A DNA stretch of 64,000 bases from Brachyspira sp. SAP_772 (GTDB lineage Bacteria > Spirochaetota > Brachyspiria > Brachyspirales > Brachyspiraceae): NCBI RefSeq assembly GCF_009755885.1, contig NZ_VYIX01000001.1:941254-1005253 (forward strand), in the 5' to 3' direction. Positions within the stretch are counted from its first letter, which is position 1, and the number at the start of each line of letters is the position of its first letter. The position numbers were made by a program, and so were the translations under genes. The notes beneath the pieces were generated by a model that saw only the letters and a list, made by a program, of their open reading frames with translations, searched no databases and had not been told where the DNA came from. Positions 769-6,229 of this stretch are shown one piece after another.

Positions 769-1672
769 AAATAAATTTAACAATGGATATATTTTTGCTA
801 TATTAGCAGTTATAATATGGAGTACAAATTTTGTAGCTGCTAGATATCTCGTAGGATTATCCCCTATAGAAATATCATTTTACAGATGGCTTGTTACTTT
901 TTTAGTATTAACTCCTTTTTGTATAGTAAGCTTAATAAAAAATATTCATTTAGTAAAAGGTTCATGTGTAAAAATAATAATAATTTCAATATTGGGAATA
1001 ACTATTTTTAATACTTTTGTATATTTAGCAGCACATACTTCTAATGCCACTAACATGTCTTTAATAGCAACATTATCCCCTATAATAATTGCTATAATAA
1101 ATAGAATTATATGGAAAAAACATTTAAGCAAACCTCAAAAATACGGGCTATTTATAATTATTTTGGGCGTTGTTATTTTACTCACAAAAGGAAGCATAGA
1201 AGTTATAAGCAAATTAAAGTTTTCTATAGGCGATTTATATATGATTTTCGCTGTAACATTATTTGCAATATATACTATAACATTAAGAATTAGACCAAAA
1301 GATTTTCCTCAAACTACTTTTTTCTATCTTATGGTAACAATAGGACTTATACCTTTACTGATATTAATGATTCCAAAATATGTTAGCCATCAAGCACATG
1401 TTTTAAACTTTAATTCAGCACTCGTACTTATATTTATTGGAGTATTTCCTTCTGCTTTAGGATTTATATTTTGGAATATAGCAGTATCAAAAATAGGAGC
1501 AATGAAAGCTAGTATAATATATGATTCTGTACCTTTCTTTTCTACAATTGGTGCTATTATTTTACTTCATGAAAAGCCATATATAGCACAAATAATAGGA
1601 GGAGTTTTAATATTAATCGGAATAATATATTCATCTGTTGCTGATAATAATAAAAAAATAGCTACGAAATAA
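761..1672 (+). CDS. EamA/DMT-family inner membrane transporter
   Basis: This 303-residue protein has about ten hydrophobic segments in two related halves, the pattern of the drug/metabolite transporter (EamA, formerly DUF6) family. The start of the first half (YIFAILAVIIWSTNFVAARYL) is the classic EamA signature. The second half begins around residue 155 (GDLYMIFAVTLFAIYTITLR). Substrate cannot be told from sequence; family members export amino acids, metabolites or drugs. Its ATG overlaps the end of scpA by 8 bases, and an AGGA eight bases upstream lies inside scpA, suggesting translational coupling. The 3' end overlaps the convergent gene at 1662 by 11 bases. Confidence 0.85.
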
Positions 1673-2540
1673 TTTTATGTATTGATTTTTCTATTATATC
1701 CATTTTCTCTTCATATGCATTAGTGCCTTCTATTCTCTGAATGCCGTCATAAGCCTGCCATAATGACACTAATGATATATAATCTTCATCTCTATCTTCC
1801 TCTTTATAATTACCATACACAATAGATGAAAGCACGCATTCAAAATCAGTAGTTATTGACTTATATATATTTATAGCCTTTTCATTATCATCAATCTCTT
1901 CAAAACAAATTGCGGTTTTTATCAAATCAGGCCCAATTAATGCCCTATAGTCTTGCATAACATTAGCAGTAATATAACTTTTATAATGCATAACCTCTGC
2001 CCTGCTTCTAGCATCTCCCGCAATCTCTGAAAAAGTGGATAGTACATCAAAAATATTTCTATACACCGAAGAAGATTTTATTATATTAATTTTATCTTTC
2101 TCAAAATTTGAAACTAAATTATGTGATATTACAGATATAGATTCATAAATATCTTTTATTATTATATTTAATTCTTCTTGATACTTGCCAAAATATAAAG
2201 CAAAAATAAACCTTACAAAATCACCATATAATAAAGCATTATTTATATTTGTATCGAAAGTGATATTTTTAATAGAGTTAATAGTTTTGTGTTTAAACAA
2301 TTCATCTATAACTTTTATCACACTTCCATCATCATAGTAATGAATCTTTGAATATTCTGACACAAATAGTTCTATAGGATTCAACTTTCTTTTATTATTA
2401 TCAAAACTAAACTCTCTTAAATATGATTCTATAGTTGATCTAGCTAAAAAAGTATTAGAAGTGGATATTGCCTTTAATATATCAGAATATTCCCCTTCAA
2501 ATAGTTCTTTTTTTAATTTTATAATATCTTCATTAAGCAT
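1662..2540 (-). CDS. Conserved hypothetical protein coupled to the Rrf2 regulator
   Basis: I do not recognise this family. The 292-residue product is soluble, mostly helical by composition, with no signal peptide or membrane segment. A stretch near residue 215 (AICFEEIDDNEKAINIYKSI) resembles one TPR helix pair, which is weak evidence for a protein-interaction role. An in-frame ATG at 2549 overlaps the upstream regulator, but the GAGGG element is adjacent to it; the ATG at 2540 lies about ten bases after GAGGG and is preferred. It is directly downstream of the Rrf2 gene and presumably co-transcribed, so it may belong to the same stress response. Confidence 0.65.
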   Translation of the reverse strand: MLNEDIIKLKKELFEGEYSDILKAISTSNTFLARSTIESYLREFSFDNNKRKLNPIELFVSEYSKIHYYDDGSVIKVIDELFKHKTINSIKNITFDTNINNALLYGDFVRFIFALYFGKYQEELNIIIKDIYESISVISHNLVSNFEKDKINIIKSSSVYRNIFDVLSTFSEIAGDARSRAEVMHYKSYITANVMQDYRALIGPDLIKTAICFEEIDDNEKAINIYKSITTDFECVLSSIVYGNYKEEDRDEDYISLVSLWQAYDGIQRIEGTNAYEEKMDIIEKSIHKIIS

Positions 2541-2545
2541 AAAAA

Positions 2546-2965
2546 TCATTCCCTCATATCATTAAGTACATCTTTTAATGTAATATGTTTTAATTTATCT
2601 TCCATAGCCTTTTGAACAATTTCAAGTTTTGGCCGCAGTGATGAGGTGATTTTTTTTCCAACAGGGCATTTTTTGTTTGGATTTTCATGAAAGCTAAATA
2701 GATTATCATCATCTAAACTCTCTACAGCATTAAATATATCGAGCAATGTAATATCTTCTATTTTCCTATTTAATGAAACCCCGCCTGTTCCTCTTTTTAC
2801 CGTGATAATGTCTGCTTTTTGTAATTGTATTAAAATATTTCTTATTATAACAGGATTAACATTAACACTTCCTGCAATAAGATTAGAAGTCATTTTCTCA
2901 TCTTTAAAATATACAATACAAACAAGAGTGTGAACTGCTATTGTAAATCTTGAACTAATCTTCAT
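2546..2965 (-). CDS. Rrf2-family transcriptional regulator (YwnA/HypR-like)
   Basis: Rrf2 proteins are small dimeric winged-helix repressors that sense redox state, NO or Fe-S status. The 139-residue protein begins MKISSRFTIAVHTLVCI and has the wing motif VKRGTGGVSL (about residues 56-65), both typical of the family. The IscR/NsrR three-cysteine cluster is missing. There are only two cysteines, Cys16 and Cys100, the latter in an NKKCPVG segment typical of the YwnA branch, so thiol sensing is more likely than a [2Fe-2S] cluster. It is transcribed divergently from the macrodomain/sirtuin genes across 126 bp that holds two palindromes, the likely operators. Relatives of this type are commonly linked to YwnB-like proteins, as found downstream here. 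Confidence 0.85.
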   Translation of the reverse strand: MKISSRFTIAVHTLVCIVYFKDEKMTSNLIAGSVNVNPVIIRNILIQLQKADIITVKRGTGGVSLNRKIEDITLLDIFNAVESLDDDNLFSFHENPNKKCPVGKKITSSLRPKLEIVQKAMEDKLKHITLKDVLNDMRE

Positions 2966-2984
2966 AAGAATATCCTTGAATAAA

Positions 2985-3013
2985 ATTATAATACATTTAT
3001 TTTATTAATGCAA
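2985..3013 (-). promoter_or_regulatory. Probable promoter of the Rrf2 gene
   Basis: On the minus strand a -35 TTGCAT (3013-3008) and a perfect -10 TATAAT (2990-2985) are separated by 17 bases, 20 bases upstream of the regulator ATG. The -35 box lies 8 bp from the nearer palindrome (3022-3042), so a regulator bound there could also affect its own gene. Confidence 0.6.
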
Positions 3014-3021
3014 GAAAATTA

Positions 3022-3078
3022 TTGTAACACTTGACATTACATTAAAACAATATATCATTGTAATAATAACTATTACAA
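3022..3078 (+). promoter_or_regulatory. Macrodomain/SirTM promoter with two Rrf2-type operators
   Basis: A -35 TTGACA (3031-3036) and -10 TATCAT (3053-3058) with a 16-base spacer precede the macrodomain gene. Two palindromes overlap them. Site 1 is TTGTAAC-N7-ATTACAT at 3022-3042 and contains the -35 box. Site 2 is a perfect TTGTAAT-N7-ATTACAA at 3058-3078, beginning on the last base of the -10 box. Centres are 36 bp apart. The same pair occurs before the YwnB-like gene at 4742-4802. Binding by the neighbouring Rrf2 protein is inferred from location and repetition of the motif. Confidence 0.75.
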
Positions 3079-3091
3079 TAGAGGTGTATTA

Positions 3092-3868
3092 ATGGATAAA
3101 CTATTATTTTTAATAGACTTTCTTATGAAAGAAAAGAATTATAAATATGATGAAGATTTAAATAACGCCATAAAAGAAAAAGATGAAGAAAAATTATATA
3201 ATTATTTTAGATGTTTGATGAATATAAGAAGCCCTGATAATATAAGCGAAGAATATTTACAAATAGAAGATGAATATTTGCAAGAGAAGCTTAAAAGTAA
3301 AAAGCTAACTAGTATAGATGATATAAAGCCAATAAAAAATAATTTATATATATGGCAAGGAGATATAACAACTCTAAAAATAGAAGCAATAGTAAATGCT
3401 GCTAACTCTGCTATGCTTGGCTGTTTTGTACCGCTTCACAAATGCATAGATAATGCAATACATAGTGCATCAGGAACTAGGCTAAGATTATATTGCAATG
3501 ACATTATGAAAGGCAATCTTGAAAAAACAGGCGGATGCATCATAACTCCAGCATTTAACCTCCCTAGTAAATATGTTTTGCATACAGTGGGGCCAATAAT
3601 AGAAAATGAAGTTTCAAAAAATGATGAAGGGCTTTTATATAAGTGCTATAAATCATGCTTAGAGACAGCTAAAAATAATAATATAAAAAGTATAGCTTTC
3701 TGCTCAATCTCCACAGGAGAGTTTAGGTTTCCAAATGAATTAGCTAGCACTATAGCGGTTAAAGCCGTGAGAGATTTTTTAGACAATACTGGGTACAATA
3801 TAAAAATAGTATTCAATGTATTTAAAGATTTAGACTATAAACTTTATAACAATATTTTAAATAATTAG
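3092..3868 (+). CDS. Zinc-type macrodomain protein (putative ADP-ribosyl hydrolase)
   Basis: Macrodomains of this type remove mono-ADP-ribose from proteins. The 258-residue protein has a helical N-terminal region (about 1-80) and then a macrodomain starting QGDITTLKIEAIVNAAN (89-105). The loop after it, GCFVPLHKC, places Cys111, His116 and Cys118 as the zinc ligands known from the macrodomains linked to SirTM in Streptococcus and Staphylococcus. The GGCIITPAFNLPSKYVLHTVGP segment is the typical second macrodomain motif. A GAGGTG ribosome site lies five bases before the ATG. The SirTM gene follows after 12 bases, so writer and eraser of ADP-ribosylation are probably co-expressed under the twin Rrf2 operators. 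Confidence 0.9.
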   Translation: MDKLLFLIDFLMKEKNYKYDEDLNNAIKEKDEEKLYNYFRCLMNIRSPDNISEEYLQIEDEYLQEKLKSKKLTSIDDIKPIKNNLYIWQGDITTLKIEAIVNAANSAMLGCFVPLHKCIDNAIHSASGTRLRLYCNDIMKGNLEKTGGCIITPAFNLPSKYVLHTVGPIIENEVSKNDEGLLYKCYKSCLETAKNNNIKSIAFCSISTGEFRFPNELASTIAVKAVRDFLDNTGYNIKIVFNVFKDLDYKLYNNILNN

Positions 3869-3880
3869 AAGGTTAAAAAT

Positions 3881-4735
3881 ATGAATGAACAATTAAATGA
3901 TATTGAATTAACAGAAAAATTAAAATTAGCTATAGAAGAATCAGACTATATACTAATAGGCTCAGGTGCAGGGCTTTCTGCTTCTGCAGGTTTTTTATAC
4001 TCTGGAAAAAGGTTTGATGATAACTTCATGGAATACAAAGATAAATATGGATTAACAGATATGTATAGTGCCTCCTTTTATAACTACCCTAGTCTAGAAG
4101 ACTTTTGGGGATTTTTTTCTTTATTTGTTTATATTAATAGATATGATATTCCAGCAGATGAAACTCATTTAAATCTTTTGGACATAGTAAAAAATAAAAA
4201 TTATTTTGTAATTACAACAAATGTTGATGGAAGATTTGAAGCCGCTAATTTTGATAAAGATAGGTTATTTAAAGTTCAGGGAGATTTTTCTCTTTTTCAA
4301 TGCTCTGTTCCATGCAGGCAAGAAACTTTCTACAATGAAAAATATATAAGAGAAATGCTAAAACAAAGAAAAGATTTAAAAATACCTTCTAATCTTATTC
4401 CAAAATGTCCGTACTGTGGAGCTAATATGTCAATGAATCTAAGAAGCGATGACACATTTGTTCAAGATGAAAACTGGTATAAAGCCAAAGATAAATATAT
4501 AGCTTTTTTAAATGAATCTAATAATAAAAATATTTTGTTTTTAGAACTAGGTGTAGGATTTAATACCCCTGCTATAATAAAATATTCTTTTTGGAGAATG
4601 GCTTTAAAAAATAAAAACTCAATTTACGCCTCCATTAATTTAAAAAATGTTTTCTCTATACCTGATTTAAAAGAGCGTTCTATATGCATAGATGATGATA
4701 TATCCAAAGTATTAAAATATATAAAAAACAAATAA
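3881..4735 (+). CDS. Class M sirtuin (SirTM), putative protein ADP-ribosyltransferase
   Basis: SirTM enzymes use NAD+ to ADP-ribosylate a protein instead of deacetylating it; the described cases modify lipoylated GcvH-L. The 284-residue protein has the sirtuin NAD loop GSGAGLSASAG (27-37), then TTNVDG (Asn114, Asp116). At the usual catalytic histidine position it has VQGD, with Gln133 replacing His; this is the class M substitution that goes with transferase activity. Four cysteines (141, 145, 175, 178) form the zinc module. The macrodomain gene is 12 bases upstream. In known systems a GcvH-L and an LplA2-type ligase are neighbours; neither is in this window, so the target is unknown. Confidence 0.88.
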   Translation: MNEQLNDIELTEKLKLAIEESDYILIGSGAGLSASAGFLYSGKRFDDNFMEYKDKYGLTDMYSASFYNYPSLEDFWGFFSLFVYINRYDIPADETHLNLLDIVKNKNYFVITTNVDGRFEAANFDKDRLFKVQGDFSLFQCSVPCRQETFYNEKYIREMLKQRKDLKIPSNLIPKCPYCGANMSMNLRSDDTFVQDENWYKAKDKYIAFLNESNNKNILFLELGVGFNTPAIIKYSFWRMALKNKNSIYASINLKNVFSIPDLKERSICIDDDISKVLKYIKNK

Positions 4736-4741
4736 TTTTAG

Positions 4742-4802
4742 TTGTAATACTTGACATTACAACTAAAATATGTTACTATAGTTGTAATGATAGCTATTAC
4801 AA
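4742..4802 (+). promoter_or_regulatory. Promoter of the YwnB-like gene with two Rrf2-type operators
   Basis: TTGACA (4751-4756), a 17-base spacer and TACTAT (4774-4779) preceded by an extended TG make a strong promoter. Two perfect palindromes TTGTAAT-N7-ATTACAA lie at 4742-4762, covering the -35 box, and 4782-4802, just after the -10 box; their centres are 40 bp apart. The arrangement copies that at 3022-3078, which implies a shared regulator. Confidence 0.8.
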
Positions 4803-4850
4803 CTCTTTAATTAAAGAAAATATTTTAATACAAAAAAAGGAGAATAAAAA

Positions 4851-5486
4851 ATGAAAATTGCAATAATAGCAGCAAATGGAAAAGCTGGAAAATTGATTAT
4901 GAATGAGGCATTAGAAAGAGGATTAGATGTTACAGCAATAGTGAGAGATAAAACAAAAATCAATAATTCAAAAGTAAAAGTTATAGAAAAAGATTTATTT
5001 GATTTAACAAAAGACGATTTAAAAGAATTTGACACTGTAGTAAGTGCGTTTGGAATATGGGATGAAAAAGAGCTCGATAAACATTCATTAGTTATGGAAC
5101 ATCTATGCAAAATACTTGCAAATACTAATACAAGACTCATGATAGTAGGAGGAGCTGCAAGTTTATACGTAAATAAAGAGCATACTATGATATTAAAAGA
5201 TGCTCCTAATTTTCCAGAGGTTTTTATGGGAGTGGCAATAAGTTCTAACAAAGCATTTGATATATTAAAAGATAAGAAAGATGTTTTGTGGACTTACGTA
5301 TCACCTTCTGCAGATTTTCGAGCTGATGGAGAGAAAACAGGAGAATATAACATAGGCAATGATGAATTATTAGTTAATTCTAAAGGTGAAAGCTATATTA
5401 GCTATGCTGACTATGCGGCTGCTTTTGCTGATGAAATAGTTAATAAAAAATACTTAAATCAAAGAATAACATTCTGTTCAAAATAA
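4851..5486 (+). CDS. NAD(P)-binding YwnB-like protein, copy 1
   Basis: The 211-residue product is an NAD(P)-binding Rossmann protein of the atypical SDR/NmrA-like group. It opens MKIAIIAANGKAGKLIMNEA, a variant dinucleotide-binding loop, followed by a strand and ALERGLDVTAIVRDKTKI. Relatives such as Bacillus YwnB are linked to YwnA-type Rrf2 regulators and to oxidative or electrophile stress; the substrate is unknown. GGAG precedes the ATG by eight bases, and the strong twin-operator promoter is 50 bp upstream. It is tandemly duplicated: copy 2 at 5594 differs at about 16 residues. Confidence 0.82.
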   Translation: MKIAIIAANGKAGKLIMNEALERGLDVTAIVRDKTKINNSKVKVIEKDLFDLTKDDLKEFDTVVSAFGIWDEKELDKHSLVMEHLCKILANTNTRLMIVGGAASLYVNKEHTMILKDAPNFPEVFMGVAISSNKAFDILKDKKDVLWTYVSPSADFRADGEKTGEYNIGNDELLVNSKGESYISYADYAAAFADEIVNKKYLNQRITFCSK

Positions 5487-5500
5487 AAAAACAATAATAT

Positions 5501-5537
5501 AAAGCGTATAAAAGATTATTTCCTTTATACGCTTTTA
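5501..5537 (+). terminator. Rho-independent terminator after YwnB-like copy 1
   Basis: A 12-bp perfect stem (AAAGCGTATAAA, 5501-5512, with its complement at 5524-5535) has an 11-base loop and a short T-rich tail. It lies between the two tandem copies, so copy 2 would depend on read-through or on a promoter I cannot see. Confidence 0.75.
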
Positions 5538-5593
5538 TTTCTAATTTTCTTTAATTAAAGAAAAATATTTTATATAAAAAAGGAGAATAAAAA

Positions 5594-6229
5594 ATGAAAA
5601 TTGCAATAATAGCAGCAAACGGAAGAGCCGGAAAATTAATTATGAATGAGGCATTAGAAAGAGGATTAGATGTTACAGCTATAGTGAGAGATAAAACAAA
5701 AATCAATAATTCAAAAGTAAAAGTTATAGAAAAAGATTTATTTAATTTAACAAAAGATGATTTGAAAGAATTTGACACTGTAGTAAGTGCATTCGGAGTA
5801 TGGGACGAGAAAGAATTTGATAAGCATTCATTAGTTATGGAACATCTATGCAAAATACTTGCAAACACAAATATTAGATTAATGGTGATAGGAGGAGCAG
5901 CAAGTTTATATGTTAATAAAGAACATACTATGATATTAAAAGATGCTCCTAATTTTCCAGAAGCTTTTATGGGATTGGCAGTAAGTGAAAATAAAGCATT
6001 TGATATATTAAAAGATAAGAAAGATGTTTTATGGACTTATGTATCACCTTCTGCAGATTTTCAAGCTGAGGGAGAGAAAACAGGAGAATACAATATAGGT
6101 CATGATGAATTATTAGTTAATTCTAAAGGCGAAAGCTATATTAGTTATGCTGATTATGCTATAGCTTTTGCCGATGAAATAGTTAATAAAAAATACTTAA
6201 ATCAACAAATAACATTCTGTTCAAAATAA
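5594..6229 (+). CDS. NAD(P)-binding YwnB-like protein, copy 2
   Basis: This is a near-identical copy of the gene at 4851 (211 residues, about 16 differences, spread along the chain and mostly conservative such as I/V, K/R and D/E). The cofactor loop IIAANGRAGK is intact and there is no frame damage, so it appears still under selection or recently duplicated. Unlike copy 1 it has no TTGTAAT-N7-ATTACAA operator and no clear promoter upstream, and a terminator hairpin separates it from copy 1. It may be expressed by read-through. Confidence 0.8.
   Translation: MKIAIIAANGRAGKLIMNEALERGLDVTAIVRDKTKINNSKVKVIEKDLFNLTKDDLKEFDTVVSAFGVWDEKEFDKHSLVMEHLCKILANTNIRLMVIGGAASLYVNKEHTMILKDAPNFPEAFMGLAVSENKAFDILKDKKDVLWTYVSPSADFQAEGEKTGEYNIGHDELLVNSKGESYISYADYAIAFADEIVNKKYLNQQITFCSK

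What the first reader, a model, noticed from the sequence alone, without database searches (positions are those of the whole stretch)
2546..6229. Redox-controlled ADP-ribosylation island: Rrf2, macrodomain, SirTM and tandem YwnB-like genes
The window holds an Rrf2 regulator with only two cysteines, a zinc-type macrodomain (Cys111, His116, Cys118), a SirTM with Gln in place of the catalytic His, and two NAD(P)-binding proteins. Known SirTM systems add GcvH-L and LplA2 and respond to oxidative stress. Here those partners are absent and a YwnA/YwnB-type module takes part instead. Shared operators tie the genes together. This looks like a variant SirTM system with an unknown target.
Basis: partly seen in the sequence, partly recalled or inferred. 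Interest (0 to 1): 0.78.

Follow-up and report, generated by a model that had tools for sequence, protein, structure and literature searches.

The report
Quinone-sensor-controlled SirTM/macrodomain operon in Brachyspira
A gene pair that probably attaches and removes ADP-ribose tags on an unknown protein sits, together with a quinone-reducing enzyme, behind DNA switches of a repressor type known to sense reactive quinones, and the same link recurs in other gut spirochaetes and Clostridia, giving this little-understood tagging system a likely trigger.

Summary
Only four perfect TTGTAAT-N7-ATTACAA sites exist in the 3.04 Mb genome; three lie here, and the reversed-pattern control gives none. Two points offered as unusual are ordinary. 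Gln for His defines class M sirtuins (SirTM), and SirTM/zinc-macrodomain pairs without GcvH-L/LplA2 are published, including in spirochaetes. The Rrf2 protein resembles the YwnA/SifR monothiol quinone-sensor class: CPVG cysteine, TGTAA-N9-TTACA operator, and ywnB as target, whose pneumococcal homologue is a proven quinone reductase. All 14 SirTM-bearing Brachyspira genomes (of 26) keep a perfect operator before both macro and ywnB, even where the genes have separated. A SifR-class Rrf2 also lies near SirTM in 8 of 10 loci examined from other spirochaetes and 9 of 78 Clostridia-type loci, some with the same tandem-operator promoter. GcvH is absent from all 26 Brachyspira genomes and LplA from 25, so the target must differ from GcvH-L and remains unknown. 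I found no paper linking SirTM to Rrf2, SifR or YwnB. Verdict: a new variant of a known kind, with an inferred inducer.

The parts
2546..2965 (-). Rrf2 repressor of the YwnA/SifR class, 139 aa, only C16 and C100 (HENPNKKCPVG)
   Evidence: Pfam Rrf2 9.3e-31; best solved relative B. subtilis YwnA 1xd7, 7.3e-34, with the CPVG cysteine aligned; C16 and C100 invariant in 10 spirochaete homologues
3022..3042 (.). Imperfect operator TTGTAACACTTGACATTACAT (2 mismatches) overlapping the macro -35 box
   Evidence: at the same place most SirTM-bearing relatives have the perfect form
3031..3058 (+). Sigma-70-type promoter TTGACA-16-TATCAT of macro-sirTM
   Evidence: 11 of 12 consensus positions
3058..3078 (.). 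Perfect operator TTGTAATAATAACTATTACAA just downstream of the macro -10 box
   Evidence: one of four genome-wide
3092..3868 (+). Zinc-type macrodomain (protein-ADP-ribose hydrolase), C111/H116/C118
   Evidence: NF003163 324.5 bits over cut-off 272; S. pyogenes-type Zn-Macro structure 8rsi 5.6e-73
3881..4735 (+). SirTM (class M sirtuin), N114/Q133/R188 conserved
   Evidence: SpySirTM 5a3a 9.2e-65; invariant columns in 15 homologues
4742..4762 (.). Perfect operator TTGTAATACTTGACATTACAA overlapping the ywnB -35 box
4751..4779 (+). Sigma-70-type promoter TTGACA-17-TACTAT of ywnB copy 1
4782..4802 (.). Perfect operator TTGTAATGATAGCTATTACAA just downstream of the ywnB -10 box
4851..5486 (+). YwnB copy 1, NAD(P)H-binding, probable quinone reductase
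   Evidence: best solved relative 4r01 (pneumococcal YwnB), 3.7e-56
5501..5535 (.). Terminator-like hairpin between the ywnB copies
5594..6229 (+). YwnB copy 2, 92.4% aa identical to copy 1, without an operator

Best explanation
A SifR/YwnA-class Rrf2 repressor dimer binds tandem TGTAA-N9-TTACA operators about 36-40 bp apart, one on the -35 box and one just past the -10 box, and silences two promoters: macro-sirTM and ywnB. An electrophile, most likely a quinone, modifies Cys100 and releases the repressor. YwnB then reduces quinones with NAD(P)H, while SirTM attaches and the Zn-macrodomain removes ADP-ribose on a protein that is not lipoyl-GcvH-L. Shown here by sequence: gene identities, catalytic residues, operators, their conservation, and the recurrence of the link. 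Inferred from characterised relatives: repression, the quinone signal, YwnB activity, transferase and hydrolase activity. Unknown: the target.
For: Operator rarity and placement. Every one of the 14 SirTM-bearing Brachyspira genomes has a perfect operator before both macro and ywnB. In G001 the macro-SirTM pair is elsewhere in the genome yet carries its own operator (L031), and in G010 rrf2 is about 7.7 kb away with the operators kept. Operator presence follows the SifR-like orthologue (22 of 23 genomes with it, 0 of 3 without; Fisher p = 0.0015), not a second SifR-class paralogue. The SifR operator TGTAA-N9-TTACA and its target ywnB are published (PMC9218516). Rrf2 of this class near SirTM in 8 of 10 loci of other spirochaetes and 9 of 78 Clostridia-type loci, YwnB in 14 and both in 7. 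Seven perfect operators in 143 upstream regions of these genes against 0.036 in shuffles and 0 for the reversed pattern. Rrf2 linkage needs 7 changes on the SirTM tree. Named example: Treponema saccharophilum pTS1 YwnB-PNPOx-Rrf2-SirTM-macro.
Against: No binding, expression or enzyme data. C16 is invariant in these homologues, so a dithiol mechanism is possible. Most Clostridia-type loci in the sample (69 of 78) have no such Rrf2 within about 6 kb, and those loci were chosen as best matches, not at random. Several Brachyspira keep rrf2-ywnB without SirTM, so SirTM is dispensable to the regulon. Genome comparisons within one genus are not independent.
Confidence: 0.72

Rival explanations
1. Same operon, but the regulator is a HypR-like dithiol switch (C16 and C100) that answers to HOCl, disulfide or nitrosative stress rather than to quinones.
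For: C16 and C100 are both invariant in 10 spirochaete homologues, and both are present in the Clostridia-type SirTM-linked Rrf2 proteins. NCBIfam's best hit is HypR, though 65 bits lies far below the cut-off of 180. HypR binds the same TGTAA-N9-TTACA core (PMC9218516).
Against: HypR's pair is C33/C99; position 33 is not Cys in the window protein. C16 is also present in Brachyspira orthologues without SirTM and in the paralogue, so it may be structural. Closest solved relative is YwnA, and YwnB is the proven quinone reductase of this class.
Confidence: 0.25
2. Macro-SirTM only happened to insert between rrf2 and ywnB; no functional link.
For: rrf2-ywnB occurs without SirTM in several Brachyspira.
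Against: The macro promoter has its own operator in all 14 genomes, also when unlinked (G001). The linkage recurs in treponemes and Clostridia with different gene orders.
Confidence: 0.05
3. An ordinary lipoylation-dependent SirTM system whose GcvH-L and LplA2 lie elsewhere in the genome.
For: SirTM and macrodomain are close to the S. pyogenes pair.
Against: GcvH absent over cut-off in 26 of 26 Brachyspira, LplA/LipB in 25 of 26, with controls ringing. Zn-Macros from minimal operons do not demodify GcvH-L in vitro (PMC11490716).
Confidence: 0.03
4. A toxin-antitoxin or anti-phage unit, with SirTM as NAD-consuming toxin and the macrodomain as antidote.
For: Other sirtuins and macrodomains act in defence and toxin systems (general knowledge).
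Against: No PADLOC match. Neighbours are redox enzymes and an electrophile-type regulator.
Confidence: 0.05

Closest known systems
SirTM / Zn-Macro minimal pair (class M sirtuin; Rack 2015 PMC4518038, PMC11490716)
   Same: Adjacent Zn-macrodomain and QG-motif sirtuin, no GcvH-L/LplA2; spirochaetes already listed as hosts
   Different: Regulator and operators now assigned; ywnB in the same regulon
Extended SirTM operon of S. aureus / S. pyogenes
   Same: Writer and eraser enzymes, association with oxidoreductases
   Different: No GcvH-L, LplA2, OYE or LLM; a canonical example (Aerococcus tenax, L226) has no Rrf2 annotated in the stretch and no operator
SifR / YwnA regulon (S. pneumoniae, B. subtilis; PMC9218516)
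   Same: Rrf2 with CPV cysteine, TGTAA-N9-TTACA operator, ywnB target
   Different: SirTM and macrodomain added to the regulon; extra invariant C16; no catE or piu genes seen at this locus
HypR of S. aureus
   Same: Rrf2 redox regulator with the same core operator
   Different: C33/C99 pair not matched; NCBIfam score far below cut-off

Membership tests
Class M sirtuin (SirTM) | QG replaces the catalytic HG | tested here: met
   Q133 G134 invariant in 15 homologues, aligned with the Q of SpySirTM
Class M sirtuin (SirTM) | Genetic linkage to a Zn-macrodomain | tested here: met
   adjacent genes, 12 bp apart
Class M sirtuin (SirTM) | ADP-ribosyltransferase without deacylase activity | not testable with these tools
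   no assay
Zn-Macro | C-x4-H-x-C zinc motif in a MacroD-type domain | tested here: met
   C111/H116/C118; NF003163 above cut-off
Extended SirTM operon | GcvH-L and LplA2 encoded | tested here: not met
SifR/YwnA class of Rrf2 | Conserved Cys in HxxPNPxC / CPV at the N-cap of helix 5 | tested here: met
   HENPNKKCPVG: C100 matches; the second Pro of the motif is Lys
SifR/YwnA class of Rrf2 | TGTAA-N9-TTACA operator | tested here: met
SifR/YwnA class of Rrf2 | Only one conserved cysteine | tested here: not met
   C16 is also invariant in the homologues compared, so 'works like SifR' is claimed, not strict membership
SifR/YwnA class of Rrf2 | Quinone adduct on the Cys releases DNA | not testable with these tools
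   no assay
Fe-S type Rrf2 (IscR/NsrR) | Three clustered Cys ligands | tested here: not met
   only two cysteines, 84 residues apart
HypR | NCBIfam equivalog cut-off and C33/C99 pair | tested here: not met
   65 of 180 bits; cysteines at 16 and 100 only
YwnB quinone reductase | Homology to 4r01 and quinone reduction | tested here: inconclusive
   homology 3.7e-56; activity not testable

The most novel reading that the evidence does not exclude
Lone SirTM/Zn-Macro pairs in anaerobic gut bacteria form a general electrophile-response ADP-ribosylation system. A SifR-class sensor switches on writer, eraser and NAD(P)H- or flavin-dependent reductases, and the writer tags a lineage-specific redox carrier instead of lipoyl-GcvH-L. 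In Clostridia the carrier could be the cysteine-rich ACGX peptide made in the same operon with a radical SAM enzyme; in Brachyspira it is still to be found.
Probability: 0.35. Interest if true: 0.85.

Novelty: new variant of a known kind. Interest (0 to 1): 0.62.

Why it matters
The Zn-Macro literature states that GcvH-L is the only known SirTM target and that the targets and physiological role of other SirTM/Zn-Macro systems are unknown (PMC11490716). A regulator of known class, a known operator and a known co-regulated enzyme give these pairs a likely signal, and so a growth condition in which to look for the tagged protein. It also suggests that the SifR quinone-sensing class reaches spirochaetes and controls a post-translational modification, which I found in no paper.

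Tried and rejected
GcvH-L or LplA2 elsewhere in the genome: searched and absent. Operator sites with one mismatch as further regulon members: at background level, not used. The second SifR-class paralogue as owner of the operators: disfavoured, since G006 and G011 have it but no perfect site and no SifR-like orthologue. YwnB as an obligate SirTM substrate: disfavoured, since YwnB occurs without SirTM in several species. Anti-phage unit: no PADLOC match. Structure prediction of the neighbour at 1662-2549: mean pLDDT 44.9, uninformative. Sampling genomes of other phyla by the genome search was not possible. Extended operons could be checked for the operator in one record only (Aerococcus, none). 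HOSCN transcriptome paper PMC10715087: no mention of the SirTM operon; the HypR paper is not held.

Full report
OBSERVATION. Family and structure searches give Rrf2 (nearest solved relative B. subtilis YwnA), a Zn-type macrodomain (NF003163 above cut-off; Zn-Macro structure 8rsi), a class M sirtuin (SpySirTM 5a3a, 9.2e-65) and two NAD(P)H-binding proteins whose best solved relative is pneumococcal YwnB 4r01. The stated residues check out: Rrf2 C16 and C100, macrodomain C111/H116/C118, SirTM Q133 with N114 and R188.

WHAT IS ORDINARY. The QG motif is what defines class M; the paper that named the class reports that Gln137 replaces the catalytic His of all other sirtuin classes and lists Spirochaetaceae among hosts (PMC4518038). 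Macro/SirTM pairs without GcvH-L and LplA2 are a described arrangement, and a Treponema pedis pair was modelled (PMC11490716). Absence of the partners therefore does not make this locus odd. It does fix one point: GcvH is missing from all 26 Brachyspira genomes over cut-off and LplA/LipB from 25, so the known substrate is not available.

OPERATORS. The palindrome TTGTAAT-N7-ATTACAA occurs four times in the 3.04 Mb genome: three times here and once before an NhaC-type antiporter gene; the reversed pattern occurs nowhere. Sites with one mismatch are at background level (10 against 7). At both promoters one site covers the -35 box (TTGACA inside the palindrome) and a second sits just after the -10 box; at the macro promoter the upstream site carries two mismatches. 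Within Brachyspira, all 14 SirTM-bearing genomes keep a perfect site before macro and before ywnB. Genomes without SirTM often keep rrf2-ywnB with the same operators. In G001 the macro-SirTM pair lies at a different place from rrf2-ywnB and carries its own site; in G010 rrf2 has moved about 7.7 kb away and the sites remain. Presence of perfect sites follows presence of the SifR-like orthologue: 22 of 23 genomes with it, 0 of 3 without (shared ancestry lowers the weight of p = 0.0015). Six genomes also have a site before the NhaC-type gene, and three have the tandem arrangement before a flavodoxin/4Fe-4S (EFR1-like) gene.

REGULATOR CLASS. SifR of S. pneumoniae, with YwnA, founded a class of Rrf2 repressors with one conserved cysteine in a CPV motif, an operator TGTAA-N9-TTACA, and ywnB as a direct target; quinones attach to the cysteine and release the DNA, and YwnB is an NAD(P)H quinone reductase (PMC9218516). 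The window has the cysteine (C100 in KCPVG), exactly that operator, and ywnB. It differs by a second invariant cysteine, C16, so a dithiol mechanism cannot be excluded. It is not of the Fe-S type (two cysteines only) and scores far below the HypR cut-off.

RECURRENCE ELSEWHERE. A scan of 84,980 species genomes gave 80 best SirTM loci, 78 of them outside Brachyspira and mostly Clostridia. A macrodomain is near in 61, a SifR-class Rrf2 in 9, YwnB in 14, both in 7, a PNPOx-type flavin protein (mostly fused to 2[4Fe-4S]) in 23-24 and a nitroreductase in 11. Seven perfect operators lie in 143 upstream regions of these genes, against 0.036 expected and none for the reversed pattern. L152 and L170 show the tandem -35/-10 arrangement of the window, and L199 has its -35 site. 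In 10 SirTM loci from other spirochaetes the Rrf2 is present in 8, with YwnB-PNPOx-macro-SirTM-Rrf2 in one (L216) and operators in L219 and L220. Treponema saccharophilum plasmid pTS1 carries YwnB-PNPOx-Rrf2-SirTM-macro. On the SirTM tree the Rrf2 linkage needs seven changes, so it is not one inherited accident (quick tree, many weak forks).

MECHANISM. Most likely the repressor holds both promoters shut; a quinone or similar electrophile modifies C100; YwnB removes quinones; SirTM and the macrodomain set and remove ADP-ribose on a target protein while the stress lasts. The regulatory wiring is well supported by sequence. The signal is inferred from the class. Enzyme activities are inferred from close relatives with conserved catalytic residues. 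The target is unknown.

TANDEM YWNB. The two copies are 92.4% identical in protein and 91.2% in DNA. Copy 1 is nearest to the B. pilosicoli gene (94.5%), copy 2 to those of G013 and G014 (92.8 and 93.7%). Only copy 1 has operators; a strong hairpin separates them. None of the other SirTM-bearing Brachyspira loci read shows a second copy.

LIMITS. The Clostridia sample is biased to near relatives. Genera and species are not independent draws. I could not reach extended operons widely (one checked: no operator). No paper in the held library joins SirTM with Rrf2, SifR or YwnB; papers outside that library were not searched.

Noticed in passing
L127, L145, L146, L148, L149, L152, L153, L159, L161, L167, L171, L183, L185, L200, L224, L227 (Clostridia and other non-spirochaete loci); L220 (spirochaete): Beside or in the same operon as SirTM/Zn-Macro lies an ACGX-repeat peptide gene (short Cys/Gly-rich repeats); the maturase beside it was confirmed as TIGR04340 radical SAM/SPASM in L146 and L227, and a nitroreductase and PNPOx-ferredoxin often follow. 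A small carrier plus its modifying enzyme mirrors GcvH-L plus LplA2, so the peptide is a candidate SirTM substrate. In L152 and L220 the peptide gene starts right behind SifR-type operators. No paper on it was found.
   Followed up: partly
G123, G173, G261 (spirochaete genomes): The only 3 of 296 spirochaete genomes with the TIGR04340 ACGX maturase are all SirTM-positive; in G261 it is the same locus as L220.
   Followed up: partly
L085 5005-5025; L071, L073, L076, L077, L079: Conserved operator before an NhaC-type Na+/H+ antiporter gene in six Brachyspira genomes, including the window's own: a probable further member of the same regulon.
   Followed up: partly
L070, L072, L082: Tandem operators before a flavodoxin/4Fe-4S (EFR1-like) gene in three Brachyspira genomes that lack SirTM.
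   Followed up: partly
G000:C1:342774-343178; L110-L116: A second SifR-class Rrf2 (about 41% identical, with C16 and CPVGC) is present in most Brachyspira, in most loci read beside a gene for a secreted NHL/SMP-30-like protein, with a different palindrome near TGTAAC-N7-GTTACA in one.
   Followed up: partly
window 1662-2549 (-): Unknown all-helical protein directly behind rrf2 on the same strand, no family match; relatives suggest the true start is 9 bases later (2540). Present behind rrf2 in G013 and G014 but not in B. pilosicoli G012.
   Followed up: partly
L225 (Enterococcus casseliflavus plasmid): Divergent Rrf2, SDR oxidoreductase, macro, SirTM, PNPOx and NUDIX hydrolase in one cluster: similar layout with a more distant Rrf2 and a possible ADP-ribose-degrading enzyme.
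   Followed up: no
L023 (G021) and L021 (G012): SirTM with an in-frame TGA and a split macrodomain frame in G021 (a draft genome, 86% complete); ywnB frame-shifted in G012 (B. pilosicoli). Pseudogenes or assembly errors.
   Followed up: no
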